NCBI GenBank assembly: GCA_002728755.1
Contig: PBVT01000034.1
Span: 1-55,294, forward strand
DNA: 55,294 nt
Reading direction: 5' to 3'
Origin: Myxococcales bacterium
GTDB lineage: Bacteria; Myxococcota_A; UBA9042; UBA3505
The notes beneath the pieces are model-generated. The model saw only the letters and a program-made list of their open reading frames with translations. It was not told where the DNA came from and made no database searches. Positions 46,193-55,054 of this stretch are shown piece after piece; position 1 is the first letter of the stretch; every line of letters starts with the position of its first letter. Position numbers and translations under genes: made by a program.

Positions 46193-48052
46193 TTACTGGA
46201 GCGGTGTGAAGAACAGTGGTTTCTTCACAGGTGTCAGCTCCAGGTTTTCGGTATGGCCAAGGCGTCGCAGATTCTTGAGGTTCCCAATGCATGCATGAAG
46301 GTTCTGACAATCGTTCGTCAGACAGGGCATGGTGCCCGCTGTGAACGCACTGCCAGGAGCTTTCAGGCTTAAATGCATATGATGATGATGGAACCGGTAC
46401 CAGCCCATACCCTCGTCTACGACTTCATAGGCGATGGGAGCTGAGTTGCAGTTGCTGTGTGGGAACCAGCCATCAGCGCATAGGATAGAGACGGCTTCGG
46501 AGACCAGGGGGCCGATCTTACCGTCAACACCGATAACACGGGTACGTGGGCTGGAGCCGAGCACACCGATAAAGAGGGCAGTTCGCCAGATGTCCAGGAT
46601 GTTGGGCTCACTTACGCAGTGGTATTGATCTGCACCACCAGAGTAGTGGTCGCAGACAGCGCGTAGATAGTTATCCGGACCCGTACTCTGAAAATAGGCC
46701 ATATCGATGTCGAAGCCATTTTCATGGGTATTGGGTGGGTGACCGGGGGAATTGATCGATGTGCCGGGAATACTTCCATCGGCTTCACTCATATCCCCCA
46801 TGCCGAGAGCATGGCCGTTTCCCCCAATCCAGGCTTCTGCCTTGCAGGAGACGTAGGCGGCGGCGTATTTGATTAGCATAATCGCATCGCGCCGCAGGTA
46901 GCTACGATACTGGTTGGTCGGGGTCTCACCATTGATGGGGTAGTCGTCGTAGCCATCACCCACTCTTGGATCGAAGACGATCACTTCACCACAATAGGAT
47001 TCGCCGCCGACGCAGTCACGCTCCGGAAGATTTGGGCAGGTGGGGCCCGGTCCCGGTCCGGGTGTGGTTCCAAGATCGGGGCCGCAGTTGCCGGTGCTCG
47101 TATTGCATATCAGACCCGCTGGGCAGCTACCCACGGTACAGGGAGGATCGTGGCATAGGCCATCCTCACCGCACACCTTATCTGGACCGCAGAAGTCGTC
47201 GGTACATGCCGGTGTGCAGTAGGCGTCGTCGCCACAGGCGTAACCGGCGGGGCAGGTGGAGTCTTGTCCACAGCCACGGAAACAGAAAGCGCTCCCTCCA
47301 GCGGTCATGGATACGCATTGGTATCCCTCAGTGTTACGACATTCTGGGGTGCCCTGGCATGCGTCGACACAGGCCGTGCCTCCACCTACGAAGATTGCTT
47401 CACAGATGGAGCCCTCGGGACAGGAGCCAGCCGTACAGTCGGAGATGAGGCAGTAGCCATTGATGAAGCCGGTGGGTTCCCCGCCATTATTCTCCTGGAA
47501 ACATTGGGCTCCAGCGTCTTTGCAGTCCGCGTTACTGGTGCAGGGACCGCCGATCGGGCTGGCGCCACCAGAGGGCGCGCCACCCTGCATGGGCCAACAC
47601 GTTCCAAATTGATCGCATTCGTAGCCTTCATTGGTTCGACATTCGTCGTCGGAAAGGCAGGATTTCAGGCAGTAACTCCCATTGTTCTGAAAGTTTGCAT
47701 CACAGATAGCGCCCGAGGGACAAGCGGCTCCACCCTGACAATCGGGTATCGCGCAATAGCCACCTGGCTGTTCCATACATATTGCACCCGGATCCGTACA
47801 GTCGGTGTCGGCTGTGCAGGCATCACCTACGTTCCCACTGCTCTGCAGGATAGGTCCATTGTCTACCGTTCCCGAACCCGTATCCACACTTCCAGAGTTC
47901 GTGTCGGCTGCGCCGGTACCGGTATCAGAACTGGTTGTATCCGAATTCGAGAAGTTCGTATTTGTATCGTCGTTAAGACTGGACTGGTTCGTGGATGGAA
48001 TACAGGCGAGGCAGAGTCCAAAAACGAGACATAAGAGACTTAAATTCTTCAT
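46193..48052 (-). CDS. Cys-rich lipoprotein with MepA-like (M74) peptidase domain
   Basis: A 619-residue lipoprotein with a signal peptide ending LCLAC. Residues 20-340 are a Ser/Thr/Asp linker and about eight Cys-rich modules (DADCTDPGAIC-like, CPSGAICDAN, CPEGSIC, CPAGLICN). The C-terminal 270 residues resemble the penicillin-insensitive murein endopeptidase: GMGDMSEADGS, HENGFDID (His443, Asp450) and HHHHMHLSLK (555-560). These reproduce the MepA order of GDMS, SHQxGxDxD and HxHxHxxL zinc ligands. It may cleave peptidoglycan cross-links or another peptide at the cell surface. No other family with this combination comes to mind; activity is inferred from motif order. Confidence 0.78.
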   Translation of the reverse strand: MKNLSLLCLVFGLCLACIPSTNQSSLNDDTNTNFSNSDTTSSDTGTGAADTNSGSVDTGSGTVDNGPILQSSGNVGDACTADTDCTDPGAICMEQPGGYCAIPDCQGGAACPSGAICDANFQNNGSYCLKSCLSDDECRTNEGYECDQFGTCWPMQGGAPSGGASPIGGPCTSNADCKDAGAQCFQENNGGEPTGFINGYCLISDCTAGSCPEGSICEAIFVGGGTACVDACQGTPECRNTEGYQCVSMTAGGSAFCFRGCGQDSTCPAGYACGDDAYCTPACTDDFCGPDKVCGEDGLCHDPPCTVGSCPAGLICNTSTGNCGPDLGTTPGPGPGPTCPNLPERDCVGGESYCGEVIVFDPRVGDGYDDYPINGETPTNQYRSYLRRDAIMLIKYAAAYVSCKAEAWIGGNGHALGMGDMSEADGSIPGTSINSPGHPPNTHENGFDIDMAYFQSTGPDNYLRAVCDHYSGGADQYHCVSEPNILDIWRTALFIGVLGSSPRTRVIGVDGKIGPLVSEAVSILCADGWFPHSNCNSAPIAYEVVDEGMGWYRFHHHHMHLSLKAPGSAFTAGTMPCLTNDCQNLHACIGNLKNLRRLGHTENLELTPVKKPLFFTPLQ

Positions 48053-49295: not shown

Positions 49296-51179
49296 ATGAA
49301 GAAATTTGATTGGAAACGTGTGACTGGGGCGAAATCGATCGCGAATTATCTGGATCGAGTTCGTCGTCTTGGTTCGTCGACGGCGAAGGATGCTCCCCTG
49401 GGGCTGGAATCCGAGTCGGTACGAATTGTGCCCGATCCTCCGACATCTTCGCCTTTAGATGTAGAGAGCCTGGATGTCTGGGGTTTTCGTGATACGGGCT
49501 TCGCGTTGGATGACCGGCGAATCGTGATGTTGAAAGGAAACCGCTACGCCTTGAGCGGTGTGGAGCTGCCCAACCTACTTCCGTGGGTGGAAGATGTGAT
49601 GGGTGTAACCATTGAACCAAGAGACATCCACGCTCCGAGTTATCCTCCGCAGATACCGGCACCCATCAAGAATGACGCGTTTCTTGCGGCCATCGAGGAT
49701 GTTCTGACCGAGGACACCATGACGGAGGATGCGGAGATCCGATTACGTCATGGGCATGGACACACCCAGGAAGAGATGTATTCCATCAAGTATGGCTCGA
49801 TGCCCCGGGTACCCGATCTGGTGGTGTATCCAACCGCAGAAGAGCAGGTTACATCGTTGGTGTCTCTGGCGATGGAGCATAATGTCTGCCTCATCCCCTA
49901 TGGTGGGGGGACCAGTGTTACCGAGGCGCTTGTTTGCCCCGAGAATGAAAAACGCATGATCGTGTCGGTTGATATGCAGCGCATGAATCGGATTCTCTGG
50001 ATTGATCCGGTGAATCGAATGGCGCGTATCGAGGCCGGCGCTGTGGGGCGTAAGATTGTGGATCAATTGGCGTCCTATGGGTTCACCATGGGCCATGAGC
50101 CCGATAGTGTTGAGTTCTCTACACTTGGAGGCTGGATCGCGACCCATGCCAGCGGTATGAAAAAGAACCGCTATGGGAATATCGAAGACCTGGTCCTCGA
50201 TGTGAACGTTGTGACGGCGGATGGTCTTTTAGAGCGTTCCGGCGTAGCTCCTCGTGAGTCGGTAGGGGCGGACCCGCGTCTGTGGGTATTTGGTTCCGAA
50301 GGGAATTTTGGAATTATTACGAGCGCTGTTGTGCGCCTCTTTCCGTTGCCTGAAGCACAGGAATATGGCTCGGTGTTATTCCCGAGTTTTGAGAAAGGCG
50401 TTGCGTTTATGTACGAACTGTCGCAGGTACCCAGCCTACCGGCGAGTGTTCGCTTAGTGGACAACGAACAGTTCCAGTTCAGTATGGCTTTGAAGCCACG
50501 ATCCGAGGGGTGGCGTGCGAAGAAGAGTAAACTGGAGAAGTTCCTTGTAACGAAGTTAAAGGGCTTCGACCCGTATAAGATGGTGGCCTGCACGCTGGTC
50601 TTTGAAGGGACCAAGCTGGAAGTAATGCTCCAGAAGCAGGAGGTTTATAAGCTGGCAAAGAAACATGGGGGCATGAAGGCCGGCTCCGAAAACGGAGAGC
50701 GTGGATACCAGTTGACCTTTGGGATCGCCTATATCCGCGACTTCGTAATGAACCATTATGTGCTGGCTGAATCCTTTGAGACGTCCGTACCCTGGACGGA
50801 GACGCTTGCCTTATGTGAGCGTGTTAAGCGTCGGGTGAAAGACGAGCATGCCAAAATGGGCTTACCTGGCACGCCGTTCATTACCTGTCGCGTAACACAG
50901 GTCTACAATACAGGGTGCTGTGTCTATTTCTACCTGGCGTACTACTACAAAGGGGTAGAGAATCCGACCGAGAGTTATAACCAACTGGAGATAGCTGCTC
51001 GCGAGGAGATCCTATCGGTGGGTGGTTCTCTTTCTCATCATCATGGGATTGGGAAGATTCGCCGCCGATTCCTTCCGGACATTATGAGTGAGGCAAGTCT
51101 GGAGTGGAACCGGAAAACCAAATCAGCCGTTGATCCCAAGAATGTCTTTGGGTCGGCTAATCAGTTGATGAATTCGTGA
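49296..51179 (+). CDS. agpS: Alkyldihydroxyacetonephosphate synthase homologue
   Basis: A 627-residue FAD protein of the vanillyl-alcohol-oxidase fold. It matches AGPS in blocks I know from the animal enzyme: HGHTQEE, PYGGGTSV (FAD loop, from about residue 202), GHEPDSVEFSTLGGW, ASGMKKNRYGNIEDLV, TCRVTQVYNTG and SLSHHHGIGK (active-site His581-583). AGPS replaces the acyl chain of acyl-DHAP with a fatty alcohol to form the ether bond. The eukaryotic peroxisomal targeting sequence is absent, as expected. The next gene supplies both substrates by prediction. The ribosome site is poor, and a plain glycolate/lactate oxidase is less likely because of the AGPS-specific blocks. Confidence 0.88.
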   Translation: MKKFDWKRVTGAKSIANYLDRVRRLGSSTAKDAPLGLESESVRIVPDPPTSSPLDVESLDVWGFRDTGFALDDRRIVMLKGNRYALSGVELPNLLPWVEDVMGVTIEPRDIHAPSYPPQIPAPIKNDAFLAAIEDVLTEDTMTEDAEIRLRHGHGHTQEEMYSIKYGSMPRVPDLVVYPTAEEQVTSLVSLAMEHNVCLIPYGGGTSVTEALVCPENEKRMIVSVDMQRMNRILWIDPVNRMARIEAGAVGRKIVDQLASYGFTMGHEPDSVEFSTLGGWIATHASGMKKNRYGNIEDLVLDVNVVTADGLLERSGVAPRESVGADPRLWVFGSEGNFGIITSAVVRLFPLPEAQEYGSVLFPSFEKGVAFMYELSQVPSLPASVRLVDNEQFQFSMALKPRSEGWRAKKSKLEKFLVTKLKGFDPYKMVACTLVFEGTKLEVMLQKQEVYKLAKKHGGMKAGSENGERGYQLTFGIAYIRDFVMNHYVLAESFETSVPWTETLALCERVKRRVKDEHAKMGLPGTPFITCRVTQVYNTGCCVYFYLAYYYKGVENPTESYNQLEIAAREEILSVGGSLSHHHGIGKIRRRFLPDIMSEASLEWNRKTKSAVDPKNVFGSANQLMNS

Positions 51180-51193
51180 TTCGGGAATCATGA

Positions 51194-51208
51194 GACAAAA
51201 GTTTTGTC
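51194..51208. promoter_or_regulatory. Perfect 7-bp inverted repeat before the FAR-GNPAT gene
   Basis: GACAAAA and TTTTGTC flank a single G in the 48 bases between the agpS stop and the next ribosome site. The one-base centre is too tight for an RNA hairpin, so a dimeric regulator operator is more plausible than a terminator. No second copy was noticed in the window. Confidence 0.35.
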
Positions 51209-51227
51209 GCATTATCGGGAGGCAGAC

Positions 51228-53942
51228 GTGAATTCAAATACAGGTGTCAATACAGGGGCCGCTCCAAAAGGGGCGAAAGTCTTCTTGACCGGTGCGACCG
51301 GTTTCGTTGGCAAGGTCGTTCTTGAGGAGCTTCTACGTCGTCGCGACGAGCTTGGCTTACGGCAGGTCTACCTGCTGATCCGTCCGACGCGGCACGAAGC
51401 ATCTCCGGAAGCACGCTTCCAGAAGGAATTGGTTCCTTCCCCTTGCTTCTCCAACCTTGATGAGAATTGGCCGGAGTACGTTACGGTGGTCTCCGGAGAG
51501 CTCACGCAACCGGCGTGTGGTCTGAGTCCAGAGGACCAGGCGATCATTGCGAACAACGTGACCCATGTCATCAATTGCGCGGCATCAATCGAATTTGATC
51601 TGCCCCTCCCAGAGGCGGCGGCCGCGAATATTACCAGCAGCCTGAACGTACTCGAGCTCGGTAAGACATGTACGAACCTCAAGTCATTTGTTGGTGTATC
51701 GACTGCCTATGTGACACCACATGTCAGTGAGGATATGAGCATCCATGAGGATCTCATACCTTTGCCGCGCCCCGCCGCAGAGATCTACCAGTCTATTGAG
51801 GACGGGACCGCAATTTCACAAGAATTGCTGGCAGAGACTGGCCATCCCAACACCTACACCTTTACGAAATGTCTGGCGGAGCACCTGTTGACCGAGCGTC
51901 GCGGTGACGTACCTCTGACGATCGTTCGACCAAGTATCGTATCGGCCACATGGCAGTATCCGTTCCCTGGCTGGATTGATAGCCATGCAGCGTTTGCTGG
52001 ATTCGTGGCCTTAATTGGTGCGGGTCGCCTTCGCGCTCTCGCAGCCAAGTCGGACACCCTCCTGGATGTAATGCCCTGTGATGAGATCGCCTTGCGTGTC
52101 ATCAACGCCTGCTTCGCTGAAAATACCGATACGGCGACCACGCGAATCGTACATGCAACGGCCGGTAAAGATCGGGGCCTGCAGATTGGCCCATGTGTCG
52201 AAGTGATCACTGATTACTTCAAGCGTCATCCATTTGATCGGGTACCCGGTGTTCATTACGTTGGTCCACGTGGCATGAAATTGCGAATGCGTGAACTGCG
52301 GCACCATCGAGCCCCGGGATTCGTTGCGGGCACATTGCTAGCGGTAACCGGCAAGCAAAAGACGCGGAAACAGGTGAAGCGGCTTGTAAACCGATTGGAT
52401 TATCTCAACCAGGCCTTCCCGTATTTCACCCAGAATACATTCGACTTCCGCTCTTCGATGCCTTTTGAGACCGACGGCTTTGAGGATATTCAATATGTGG
52501 AGACGATCTGCCACGGTGTGTATCAAAATCTTTTGAAGAAGGATGCACGAGAGATGCCCTTCGCGGGTCGTAAGCACCGACCGGAGAAGACGGATTTGTC
52601 GTGGACGTTCTCCCAACCAAAAGGGAACTGGGCCATTCGTTCCTCGGCCTATCTGGTGCGAAAGACACTGCGTCGATTCACGGAGCAGGTGACCTTTGAT
52701 CGCCCGTCCTTCGAGGAAGCCGCCCAGAAGGTGGATCCGGATAGCCTGGTGGTGCTGATTCCGACGCACCGGAGCTATATGGATTTCGTCCTCTGTTCCT
52801 ATCTCTTCTTCGCCAAGCCGGATATGGGGATTGCGATTCCGCGTATTGCGGCGGCCGATGAGTTCTCACGCATTCCATTGCTGGGGTGGCTCTTTAAGCA
52901 GACCCACGCCTTCTATATTAAACGGGGGCTCGGCCGGGAAGATCGCGAGTTGACCGAAAAGATCCAGAATCTGGTCGAAGAGCGTGAGACCTTGAAGTTC
53001 TACATAGAAGGTACGCGGAGCCGTTCACGGAAATTCCTGCAGCCTCGCCGTGGTCTTTTGAAAGCGATTCATGCTACCGGGCAGAAATGTACAGTGCTTC
53101 CCATCTCTATCACCTACGATCGTGTGCCCGAGGAAGAAGCATTCCTTCGTGAATTGGGTGGCGGTGATAAGCCAAAAATGAAGCTTCGTTCGCTCTTGGC
53201 GTGGGCCTCCCGCGTTGCTGTGGGTCGGGTCGACGTTGGTCGTGTCCATATGGTCTGTGGTGAGCCCCAGCTAATGGACACGGATACGGATGTGTACCAG
53301 TTCAGTCGTGATGTCATGACCGAGCTTCAGAAGAACACATTCCCCACCAGCCATCACCTTCGCTGCTTCGTCGAAAAGAACCCGAAGCTTGGGCTGGACG
53401 TCCAGTGGCTCCAGGATCAGATTGAGAGCCGGGGCGGCCGGGTCGTGGATAGTAATCTAGGAGAAGAGGAGCAGGTCGATCCGATGGCGGAACGATGCAT
53501 GCGCTATAACTGGTCCTATTTCTTCTACCAGGAAGTGGCCGAACTTTGCCCCGATAATCCTGCGATTCAACAACATCTGGCCCAGAACAGTTATATCCCA
53601 CCGCGCCTGAGCGAAGGGGCGGCGAATGATCCCAAGATTCAGGCATTGGTTCGTGCTCTGTTTGAGCCGGTATGTCGTGACTATGCAACGACGGCCGAGC
53701 TGCTTGGAAACCCATCGAGTCCGTTGGTAGTAACGGAACCCAGAGAAGTGGTTCGTAGAGTGCCGAGCGCACATCTTCCCAATGTGGAGATGGCCTTCAC
53801 CGACCTTATCGATCGCAAGATCCTTATTCGTGACGATGAAGATTCATCCCTCTACTGGGGGCCAAATGCACGAGAAGTGACGCATTATCGAATCCAATGT
53901 CTCTGGCCCGATAAGAAACGAAAACTGACAGCCCTTGGATAA
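51228..53942 (+). CDS. Fusion: fatty acyl-CoA reductase plus GNPAT/PlsB-type acyltransferase
   Basis: A 904-residue two-enzyme polypeptide. The GTG at 51228 has GGGAGG five bases upstream. Residues about 15-440 form a fatty acyl-CoA reductase of the FAR (male-sterility) type, with TGATGFVGK (NADPH loop, 21-29) and Y210-TFT-K214. Residues about 470-700 form a glycerol-phosphate/DHAP acyltransferase: HRSYMDF (H514, D519), DEFSRIPLLGWL, IEGTRSRSRK (E594-R597) and LPISITYDRV. These resemble GNPAT more than short PlsC proteins. A helical GNPAT-like tail follows. Together the halves would make a fatty alcohol and 1-acyl-DHAP, exactly the two substrates of the AGPS homologue encoded 48 bases upstream. 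Confidence 0.88.
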   Translation: MNSNTGVNTGAAPKGAKVFLTGATGFVGKVVLEELLRRRDELGLRQVYLLIRPTRHEASPEARFQKELVPSPCFSNLDENWPEYVTVVSGELTQPACGLSPEDQAIIANNVTHVINCAASIEFDLPLPEAAAANITSSLNVLELGKTCTNLKSFVGVSTAYVTPHVSEDMSIHEDLIPLPRPAAEIYQSIEDGTAISQELLAETGHPNTYTFTKCLAEHLLTERRGDVPLTIVRPSIVSATWQYPFPGWIDSHAAFAGFVALIGAGRLRALAAKSDTLLDVMPCDEIALRVINACFAENTDTATTRIVHATAGKDRGLQIGPCVEVITDYFKRHPFDRVPGVHYVGPRGMKLRMRELRHHRAPGFVAGTLLAVTGKQKTRKQVKRLVNRLDYLNQAFPYFTQNTFDFRSSMPFETDGFEDIQYVETICHGVYQNLLKKDAREMPFAGRKHRPEKTDLSWTFSQPKGNWAIRSSAYLVRKTLRRFTEQVTFDRPSFEEAAQKVDPDSLVVLIPTHRSYMDFVLCSYLFFAKPDMGIAIPRIAAADEFSRIPLLGWLFKQTHAFYIKRGLGREDRELTEKIQNLVEERETLKFYIEGTRSRSRKFLQPRRGLLKAIHATGQKCTVLPISITYDRVPEEEAFLRELGGGDKPKMKLRSLLAWASRVAVGRVDVGRVHMVCGEPQLMDTDTDVYQFSRDVMTELQKNTFPTSHHLRCFVEKNPKLGLDVQWLQDQIESRGGRVVDSNLGEEEQVDPMAERCMRYNWSYFFYQEVAELCPDNPAIQQHLAQNSYIPPRLSEGAANDPKIQALVRALFEPVCRDYATTAELLGNPSSPLVVTEPREVVRRVPSAHLPNVEMAFTDLIDRKILIRDDEDSSLYWGPNAREVTHYRIQCLWPDKKRKLTALG

Positions 53943-53956
53943 ACGGTCGTTCTGCG

Positions 53957-55054
53957 ATGGGTCCCATACTTGTAACCGGCGCGTCTGGATTTCTGGGACG
54001 GCATCTTTTGACGACATGGAAGGAGCAGGGCGGGGACGTGCCCTGTTACGCGCTGGTTCGTGATGTACAGGCCTGGGACAAGATGGATTGGGTACAAGGT
54101 CTATCCCACGTACAAGCTGTAAAGGGTGAGATTACGGACTCGGAGAGCCTGGGGCAGGTTCCCGAGAAGCTGTCGGGTATCTTTCACCTGGCAGGCCTGG
54201 TGCGGCATAGCAAAACGGATCGTGCCGAAGTGTTTCGCATCAATGTTGATGCAACCCTCAATATGGTACGACTGGCAGCAAAGACGGGCGCGCGTCTGGT
54301 GTTTGTGTCGACGTCAGGCACGGTAGGTGCCTTTGATTCTCCCGATGGGTGGGCCGATGAGAACTCGCCCTTCCTTGAGGACACCATCGGTGGTTGGCCG
54401 TATTACGCATCCAAGTTGGAGGCGGAGATCCAGGGGCGTGCTCTTGCCGATGAGCTTGGTGTGGAATTTGTTGTGATCCGGCCACCCGTTATGTTGGGCC
54501 CCGGGGATCACCGCTTTCGTACTACCGACAAGGTCATCCGTTTTCTGCGCAAAAAATTCCCCTTTCTCCCTCTGGGAGGGATCAACTTTATCGATGTACG
54601 TGATGCCGCCCATGCGCTGGTACAGGCGATGAAGATATCCACCCCGAAAACGGTTTATCATTTGCCAGGAAAAGCCTGTTCAATCGAAGAGTTCTACGCC
54701 ATGATAGAGGCTATCTCTAATGTGCCTTTACCGCGGTTTCGACTCTCGCCGGGCTGGGCCCAGGTGATCGCGCGAACGGGGGTTTTTGTAGACCGATTTC
54801 GGCCCTGGAAGAAATCGTCCCTATTGCCGGACCCGGTGGTTTTTGAGATGGCCTCGAAGTTCTGGGGGCTACGTTCTCTGTATGCAGCCGACGATCTTGG
54901 CTTTATAAGCCGTGATCCTCGAGTGACCCTCTATGACACGGTGCATTGGCTTAAAGAACATTACGCGGGTCTGGAGCATCTTGAGCTCGTACAGACTTCG
55001 GAGGCACCGGCGGAAGAACGAGAGTCAGAGAAGGGTGTTGTCGTCCAGAGCTAA
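53957..55054 (+). CDS. Extended SDR / NAD(P)-dependent epimerase-dehydratase family reductase
   Basis: A 365-residue extended short-chain dehydrogenase. The N-terminal TGASGFLGRHL loop binds the dinucleotide, and the active site is in WPYYASKLEAE (Tyr-x3-Lys), with the preceding Ser in VSTSGTVG. IRPPVMLGPGDHR and FIDVRDAA are family blocks shared with 3-beta-hydroxysteroid-dehydrogenase-like and dihydroflavonol-reductase-like proteins. It starts 14 bases after the fusion gene with no clear ribosome site, so coupling is likely. Reduction of alkyl-DHAP to 1-alkyl-glycerol-3-phosphate would fit the operon, but this is inferred from position only. Its end overlaps the convergent gene by 30 bases. 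Confidence 0.8.
   Translation: MGPILVTGASGFLGRHLLTTWKEQGGDVPCYALVRDVQAWDKMDWVQGLSHVQAVKGEITDSESLGQVPEKLSGIFHLAGLVRHSKTDRAEVFRINVDATLNMVRLAAKTGARLVFVSTSGTVGAFDSPDGWADENSPFLEDTIGGWPYYASKLEAEIQGRALADELGVEFVVIRPPVMLGPGDHRFRTTDKVIRFLRKKFPFLPLGGINFIDVRDAAHALVQAMKISTPKTVYHLPGKACSIEEFYAMIEAISNVPLPRFRLSPGWAQVIARTGVFVDRFRPWKKSSLLPDPVVFEMASKFWGLRSLYAADDLGFISRDPRVTLYDTVHWLKEHYAGLEHLELVQTSEAPAEERESEKGVVVQS

What the first reader, a model, noticed from the sequence alone, without database searches (positions are those of the whole stretch)
49296..55054. Eukaryote-like ether-lipid operon with FAR and GNPAT fused in one protein
The window encodes an AGPS homologue (AGPS-specific blocks and HHH active site), then a 904-residue protein joining a fatty acyl-CoA reductase to a GNPAT-type acyltransferase, then a reductase. 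In animals GNPAT, FAR1 and AGPS are three separate peroxisomal proteins. AGPS needs acyl-DHAP and a fatty alcohol, and the fusion would make both. This gives a compact, aerobic-type bacterial route to alkyl ether lipids, distinct from the anaerobic plasmalogen reductase (PlsA) route. An AgpS homologue is known in Myxococcus; I do not know of a described FAR-GNPAT fusion.
Basis: partly seen in the sequence, partly recalled or inferred. Interest (0 to 1): 0.93.

Follow-up and report, generated by a model that had tools for sequence, protein, structure and literature searches.

The report
Bacterial operon for ether-linked membrane lipids
A Myxococcota genome carries three adjacent genes, one coding for two enzymes joined in a single protein, that likely make ether-linked membrane lipids by the route animals use; the same gene set is already described in Myxococcus and the joined enzyme in protists, so this is a well-supported new example and not a new kind.

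The parts
49296..51179 (+). AGPS homologue (alkylglycerone-phosphate synthase), 627 aa; Arg386, Tyr544 and His581-583 at 50451, 50925 and 51036-51044
   Evidence: 588 bits to guinea-pig AGPS 4bby; residues that differ in the PDB variants 4bc7 (R to H) and 4bca (Y to F) are R and Y here
51204..53942 (+). FARAT: fatty acyl-CoA reductase fused to GPAT/GNPAT-type acyltransferase, 912 aa from TTG (904 aa from ATG 51228)
51267..52538 (+). FAR half (residues 22-445): TGATGFVG at residue 29, NTYTFTK at 216
52545..53915 (+). Acyltransferase half (residues 448-904): HRSYMDF at residue 522, EGTRSR at 602
53957..55054 (+). Extended SDR, ElbE-like, 365 aa; likely alkyl-DHAP reductase; TGASGFLG at residue 7, YYASK at 149
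   Evidence: Pfam Epimerase; 32% to M. xanthus ElbE; SDRs 42-51% identical fused behind FARAT in P0244-P0246
48191..49045 (+). PlsC-like acyltransferase, 284 aa, 250 bases upstream of AGPS; possible sn-2 acyltransferase of the pathway, link unproven
   Evidence: PF01553 102 bits; TIGR00530 104.4 bits, cut-off 102.95; a PlsC-like hit in only 2 of the 48 FARAT-family loci (L027, L046), downstream there

Best explanation
Three tightly spaced genes encode an AGPS homologue, a single protein joining a fatty acyl-CoA reductase to a GPAT/GNPAT-family acyltransferase (FARAT), and an extended SDR, and together they likely make 1-alkyl-glycerol-3-phosphate, the precursor of ether phospholipids. Inferred steps: the FAR half would reduce acyl-CoA to fatty alcohol with NADPH; the acyltransferase half would acylate DHAP; AGPS would swap the acyl chain for the fatty alcohol; the SDR would reduce alkyl-DHAP to alkyl-G3P; a PlsC-type enzyme would then add the sn-2 chain. 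Elsewhere in the genome a CarF/PEDS1 homologue is predicted to desaturate the product to plasmalogen. Shown: the genes, their homology, predicted folds, spacing and co-occurrence. Inferred: every reaction.
For: AGPS: the four AGPS sequences lead at 588 to 290 bits, best non-AGPS 97; Tyr, Arg and HHH kept. FARAT: model pLDDT 89.5, pTM 0.85; the halves match FAR and GPAT1; both halves align with Paramecium (29%, 35%) and Balamuthia (30%, 34%) FARATs; HRSYxDF in 118 of 120 bacterial and 21 of 21 classical eukaryotic FARATs tested against HRSHxDY in the two solved GPATs. Linkage: of 377 phylum genomes 38 have a FARAT-family match (27 spanning the joint, 11 FAR-only or acyltransferase-only); 35 of the 38 have AGPS, against 8 of 339 others; 30 of the 35 adjacent on one strand. 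The genome has another acyltransferase (549 aa, PlsB-like, 57 bits) overlapping a G3P dehydrogenase gene (gpsA, 376 bits), so FARAT need not be the housekeeping GPAT. SDR fused to FARAT in P0244-P0246. No full ElbD match in the genome. CarF: PF10520 187 bits, nine of nine essential histidines.
Against: No activity or lipid data for this organism. GPAT versus DHAPAT is unresolved by the tree (root 59/12). GPAT_C and FAR C-terminal (Sterile) Pfam models hit only 17 and 23 of 35 family members at E <= 1, best 7.6e-4 and 2.1e-4. NCBIfam's best profile for the AGPS gene is glcD (153 bits, cut-off 568). The SDR lies downstream in only 26 of 42 testable loci. Half of the FARAT-family carriers lack PF10520 (19 of 38), and the own CarF is under NCBI's CarF cut-off (216 against 500 bits). 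In M. xanthus, disrupting the AGPS gene costs only a minor part of the ether lipids (PMC9131029).
Confidence: 0.82

Rival explanations
1. The operon makes the alkyl ether part of specialised lipids (in M. xanthus linked to homospermidine lipids) and not bulk membrane phospholipid.
For: PMC9548883 (passage) says MXAN_1675/1676 are upregulated in predation and seem also involved in homospermidine lipids, citing Hoffmann 2018 (not read).
Against: The chemistry would be the same up to alkyl-DHAP (inference); co-occurrence with PF10520 in 16 of 18 FARAT carriers of the own class favours a phospholipid end product. No homospermidine lipid genes were searched for.
Confidence: 0.12
2. FARAT is a wax-ester or ester-lipid enzyme: the acyltransferase half is an ordinary G3P acyltransferase and the FAR half supplies alcohol for something else.
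For: The closest solved acyltransferases are GPATs, and the tree does not separate DHAPAT from GPAT.
Against: AGPS, whose substrate is acyl-DHAP, is next door in 41 of 45 family loci with room upstream; loss of the same fusion in Dictyostelium leaves about 13% of its ether storage lipid, and the Tetrahymena protein is reported as bifunctional (PMC7375469, citing Dittrich-Domergue 2014).
Confidence: 0.08
3. The SDR is not the alkyl-DHAP reductase but reduces the fatty aldehyde made by FAR, or has another role.
For: It scores as HpnA-like (136 bits, below the 367.65 cut-off). The known enzymes of this step, Ayr1 and Dhrs7b, are also SDRs (PMC13256971, passages), but of the classical and not the extended type as I recall; they were not compared here. 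It is absent downstream in 16 of 42 loci.
Against: FARs usually make alcohol without a partner (recalled); an SDR is fused behind FARAT in three proteins; inactivating its M. xanthus relative elbE lowered ether lipids (PMC9131029).
Confidence: 0.25

Closest known systems
Myxococcus xanthus MXAN_1676-1675-1674 operon (PMC9131029; Curtis 2006 cited there, not read)
   Same: Same three genes in the same order: AGPS, FAR1-like + GNPAT-like fusion, NAD-dependent epimerase/dehydratase; L022 (M. xanthus AM003) gives 59%, 43% and 42% identity to the window's proteins.
   Different: M. xanthus also has ElbD, which dominates ether-lipid synthesis there; no full ElbD match was found in the window's genome.
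FARAT of Tetrahymena (TtFARAT) and Dictyostelium (fatA)
   Same: FAR then acyltransferase in one chain; loss of Dictyostelium FARAT cuts its ether storage lipid to about 13% (PMC7375469).
   Different: Dictyostelium FARAT is peroxisomal (PTS1) and 1279 aa; two classical eukaryotic FARATs tested score strongly for GPAT_C and Sterile, bacterial ones barely. These two proteins themselves were not compared here; Paramecium and Balamuthia relatives were.
Animal FAR1, GNPAT and AGPS
   Same: Same three reactions expected (PMC9131029).
   Different: Separate peroxisome-associated proteins; GNPAT and FAR1 were not compared here.
ElbD (M. xanthus ether-lipid enzyme)
   Same: Carries an N-terminal FAR domain and a C-terminal acyltransferase; ElbE resembles the window's SDR (32%).
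   Different: Also has AMP-binding and PP-binding domains, 1474 aa; FAR 27% identical over one stretch; no match to the FARAT acyltransferase profile at E <= 1e-10 in 10 of 10 ElbD-like proteins tested.
CarF / TMEM189 / PEDS1 plasmanylethanolamine desaturase
   Same: Genome copy L093:6760-7581 keeps nine of nine essential histidines and is 39% identical to M. xanthus CarF.
   Different: On another contig; 216 bits to NCBI's CarF model, cut-off 500; activity untested.

Membership tests
AGPS (alkyl-DHAP synthase) | Full-length similarity to AGPS above other FAD-linked oxidases | tested here: met
   588 bits over residues 58-623 against 97 bits for the best solved non-AGPS; glcD profile 153 bits, cut-off 568
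AGPS (alkyl-DHAP synthase) | Tyr, Arg and HHH residues of the guinea-pig enzyme | tested here: met
   R386, Y544, H581-583 align with R419, Y578 and H615-617 (alignment; Tyr number and roles recalled)
AGPS (alkyl-DHAP synthase) | Exchange of acyl for alkyl on DHAP | not testable with these tools
   needs assay
FAR (alcohol-forming fatty acyl-CoA reductase) | NAD_binding_4 with TGxxGFxG and YxxxK | tested here: met
FAR (alcohol-forming fatty acyl-CoA reductase) | FAR C-terminal (Sterile) domain | tested here: inconclusive
   16.7 bits, cut-off 35.4; 23 of 35 members at E <= 1
GPAT/GNPAT acyltransferases | HX4D and EGTRSR motifs in a GPAT-type fold | tested here: met
GPAT/GNPAT acyltransferases | GPAT_C domain | tested here: inconclusive
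   17 of 35 members at E <= 1, best 7.6e-4; window protein itself not hit
GNPAT (DHAP acyltransferase) rather than GPAT | Groups with DHAP-using enzymes | tested here: inconclusive
   HRSYxDF shared with classical FARATs, but root 59/12; no animal GNPAT in the tree
GNPAT (DHAP acyltransferase) rather than GPAT | DHAP as acyl acceptor | not testable with these tools
   needs assay
FARAT | FAR N-terminal to acyltransferase in one chain, both homologous to eukaryotic FARAT | tested here: met
   alignments to P0293 and P0257 over both halves
CarF/PEDS1 | PF10520 with nine essential histidines incl. H113 | tested here: met
   187 bits; 9 of 9, the nine taken as the columns conserved in 22 sequences; H113 and the count are from PMC9131029
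CarF/PEDS1 | NCBI CarF equivalog model NF045946 over its cut-off | tested here: not met
   216.5 bits, cut-off 500, over 2-262 of 273; so it is a PEDS1-type homologue and not a named CarF by that model
ElbD route | FAR-ACS-ACP-AT protein in the genome | tested here: not met
   only two partial matches at E <= 1e-20, both within the ACS part (572-1031, 712-1089), in ORFs of 605 and 647 aa; genome 93% complete
PlsA/PlsR anaerobic plasmalogen route | plasmalogen synthase genes | not tested
   not searched for
Alkyl-DHAP reductase (Ayr1/Dhrs7b) | Similarity to Ayr1/Dhrs7b | not tested
   no such sequence in hand; the SDR scores as HpnA-like below cut-off

The most novel reading that the evidence does not exclude
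The AGPS-FARAT-SDR operon plus CarF is a complete, self-sufficient aerobic plasmalogen pathway in a Myxococcota lineage without ElbD, the bacterial counterpart of the protist peroxisomal route (FARAT, AGPS, PEDS1). The FAR-acyltransferase fusion moved between bacteria and eukaryotes as a unit: both halves of the bacterial protein are sister to the corresponding parts of giant algal fusions.
Probability: 0.35. Interest if true: 0.75.

Novelty: new member of a known kind. Interest (0 to 1): 0.5.

Why it matters
In M. xanthus FARAT-AGPS contributes little next to ElbD. A genome with FARAT, AGPS and CarF and no detected ElbD would let one ask directly whether this route alone supports ether lipids and plasmalogens in an aerobic bacterium. 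FARAT-SDR fusions nominate an enzyme for the alkyl-DHAP reduction step. The sister relation to algal giant fusions bears on how eukaryotes and bacteria came to share ether-lipid genes.

Tried and rejected
Rejected: AGPS as a glycolate/lactate oxidase. Rejected: a chance or assembly fusion (all 120 listed of 1031 homologues carry both domains). Rejected: a novel fusion. Rejected as a general rule: FARAT always with CarF (19 of 38).

Led nowhere or limited: the ElbD survey of the phylum failed twice by machine error, so whether CarF carriers without FARAT have ElbD is open. No animal GNPAT or FAR1, TtFARAT or Dictyostelium FARAT entered the trees. The AU test (bacterial + algal-type acyltransferases as one clade, p 0.0165, that is rejected) included a row, P0315, that I had misfiled: it groups with classical FARATs. 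Without it the 39 rows are one clade at 99/100 in the same tree. The AU test was set after I had seen the quick tree, so its p is only indicative. Choice of rows: of 120 proteins listed I drew domains for 20 classical, 21 algal-type, 10 ElbD-like and 3 SDR-fused; the FAR tree used 18, 12, 7 and 2 of these, the acyltransferase tree 20, 14, 0 and 2. Of the 120 bacterial proteins listed, 10 went into each tree, and of 79 loci, 25 were considered (L002, L005 and L016 dropped as near-duplicates; L033 also from the acyltransferase tree). Most algal-type rows are unnamed; four tree rows have organism names. Literature: nine searches; the giant algal fusion and FARAT-SDR fusions were not seen in the listings, but most subscription papers are not held. 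Lorenzen 2014, Curtis 2006, Dittrich-Domergue 2014 and Hoffmann 2018 were not read. Papers opened were seen as passages found by search terms, none in full.
Full report
What is there. Three ORFs follow each other on the + strand: AGPS 49296-51179, the fusion 51204-53942 and an SDR 53957-55054, with 24 and 14 bases between them. A PlsC-like gene ends 250 bases upstream of AGPS. The window is contig C132 of a 4.14-Mb, 93%-complete assembly. Genomes of its class are exact matches of records titled uncultured Myxococcales or Myxococcales bacterium (L004, L006, L029, L007), so I take the phylum as Myxococcota; the class is unnamed, and I did not test whether it is M. xanthus's.

AGPS. The four PDB sequences called alkyl-DHAP synthase lead at 588, 587, 586 and 290 bits; the best other FAD oxidase has 97. 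NCBIfam gives no AGPS hit; its best is glcD, 153 bits against a cut-off of 568. In the alignment, the residues that differ in 4bc7 (R to H) and 4bca (Y to F) are R386 and Y544 here, and HHH 581-583 aligns with the enzyme's HHH.

DHAP or G3P? The two solved GPATs read HRSHxDY; 118 of 120 bacterial and 21 of 21 classical eukaryotic FARATs read HRSYxDF, but only 2 of 20 algal-type proteins do, and EGTRSR itself is in 73 of 120 bacterial ones. The genome has another, PlsB-like acyltransferase (57 bits) overlapping gpsA (376 bits). These point to DHAP, but the tree root between FARATs and GPATs is weak (59/12), so this stays inferred.

Operon and distribution. In one genome collection, 48 of 79 fetched loci are family members (best match >= 39% identity, >= 150 bits); AGPS is directly upstream in 41 of 45 with room, the SDR downstream in 26 of 42. 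Record titles include Myxococcota, Pseudomonadota, Actinomycetota, Bacteroidota, Gemmatimonadota, Spirochaetota, Binatota (acyltransferase-only), Sericytochromatia and Nitrospira; most are MAGs, so some labels may be wrong. In 377 genomes of the own phylum 38 have a FARAT-family match at E <= 1e-60: 27 span the joint, 11 are FAR-only or acyltransferase-only. AGPS is in 43, both are in 35 (26 of the 27 spanning ones). Of the 35, 30 are adjacent on one strand with 12-279 bases between matches; in the other 5 the two lie on different contigs. Kinship between genomes is not corrected for in the Fisher tests.

The SDR. It is 32% identical to M. xanthus ElbE (163 bits) and 26% to ElbA (68 bits). Three proteins carry an SDR 42-51% identical to the window's behind FARAT: P0244, P0245, and P0246, the last named partial and with an incomplete acyltransferase domain. 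I read this as the alkyl-DHAP reductase; untested.

Plasmalogen end step. PF10520 hits one ORF on contig C52 (187 bits). Its 273-aa product keeps nine histidines conserved in all 22 sequences aligned, matching the eight universal ones plus H113 that PMC9131029 lists as essential in CarF, H113 being absent from plants and Alphaproteobacteria; the motifs HWGCDT and FREHH, which I take to hold the Asp and Phe also reported as needed, are in the sequence. Against this, NCBI's CarF model gives 216 bits, under its cut-off of 500. PF10520 is in 95 of 377 phylum genomes, one a 33-bit fragment; only the 20 highest-scoring loci were examined for histidines, and all 20 keep the nine. PMC9131029 and PMC9304148 call CarF largely confined to Cystobacterineae, with Nannocystis exedens, Leptospira and non-complementing Alphaproteobacteria beyond; public records already name CarF in a Labilithrix MAG. 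Of 38 FARAT-family carriers 19 have PF10520, against 76 of 339 others (p 4e-4); in the own class 16 of 18. M. xanthus ElbD (FAR, AMP-binding, PP-binding and acyltransferase domains, flanked by SDR genes) has only two partial, ACS-region matches in this genome.

Relation to eukaryotes. A length-shifted search brought two-domain proteins of Balamuthia, Paramecium, Moneuplotes and Thraustotheca, and longer ones from diatoms (Seminavis, Thalassiosira), Triparma and the dinoflagellate Prorocentrum; P0247 and P0267 read ACBP, DegT-like, FAR, acyltransferase, AGPS in order. In the FAR tree 30 bacterial rows form one clade (100/97) and join 11 algal-type rows (10 with AGPS domains) at 100/99.6; holding all 30 eukaryotic rows together is rejected (AU p 0.014). 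In the acyltransferase tree 26 bacterial rows (95/94) join 13 algal-type rows (12 with AGPS domains) at 99/100. FAR proteins without the acyltransferase, from Spirochaetota and Deltaproteobacteria, nest inside the bacterial fusion clade (quick tree, fork support 86), so splitting of a fused ancestor is likely. AGPS parts of 14 algal-type proteins are 42-46% identical to the window's AGPS. Direction of transfer is not shown.

Known or new. The operon is in print for M. xanthus (PMC9131029, passages read): MXAN_1676 AGPS, MXAN_1675 FAR1-like + GNPAT-like, MXAN_1674 epimerase/dehydratase; disrupting 1676 caused a minor loss because ElbD dominates. FARAT is in print for Dictyostelium and, cited there, Tetrahymena (PMC7375469, passages). 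So this is a new member of a known kind; the added value is context: no ElbD found, a CarF-type desaturase present, SDR fusions, and the algal sister group.

Searches were made while re-reading: they confirmed gpsA and the ElbD domains and added the CarF cut-off result.

Noticed in passing
G000:C52:15957-16478 (L093:6760-7581): CarF/PEDS1-type desaturase with all nine essential histidines, on another contig of the same genome; named eukaryotic hits in the list include Planoprotostelium and Dictyostelium at 40%; under NCBI's CarF cut-off.
   Followed up: yes
P0244, P0245 (contig length as L016's), P0246: FARAT and the SDR in one polypeptide; the match to the acyltransferase half ends early.
   Followed up: partly
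P0247, P0263, P0267, P0290, P0310: Algal or algal-type proteins of 1.8-2.5 kilo-residues joining FAR, acyltransferase and AGPS (three of the five also ACBP, four also DegT-like); algal-type rows are sister to bacterial FARAT in both halves.
   Followed up: partly
L032, L040, L044, L033, L034, L037, L039, L041, L043: AGPS followed by acyltransferase-only (Binataceae), FAR-only, or 630-760-aa FAR frames without the HRSYMD motif (Spirochaetota).
   Followed up: partly
L049, L057: Gammaproteobacterial AGPS (46% identical) preceded by a different FAR protein, open frames of 830 and 775 aa, that groups with ElbD FARs: a second AGPS-FAR arrangement.
   Followed up: no
377 genomes of the phylum: PF10520 is in 95 of 377, wider than the near-restriction of CarF to Cystobacterineae in the papers read; 76 of the 95 lack a FARAT-family match.
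   Followed up: partly
46193-48052 (-): 619-aa protein rich in Cys with an HHHHMHLSL tail and no Pfam or NCBIfam match at E <= 1e-3; resemblance to a murein endopeptidase active site is recalled, not tested.
   Followed up: no
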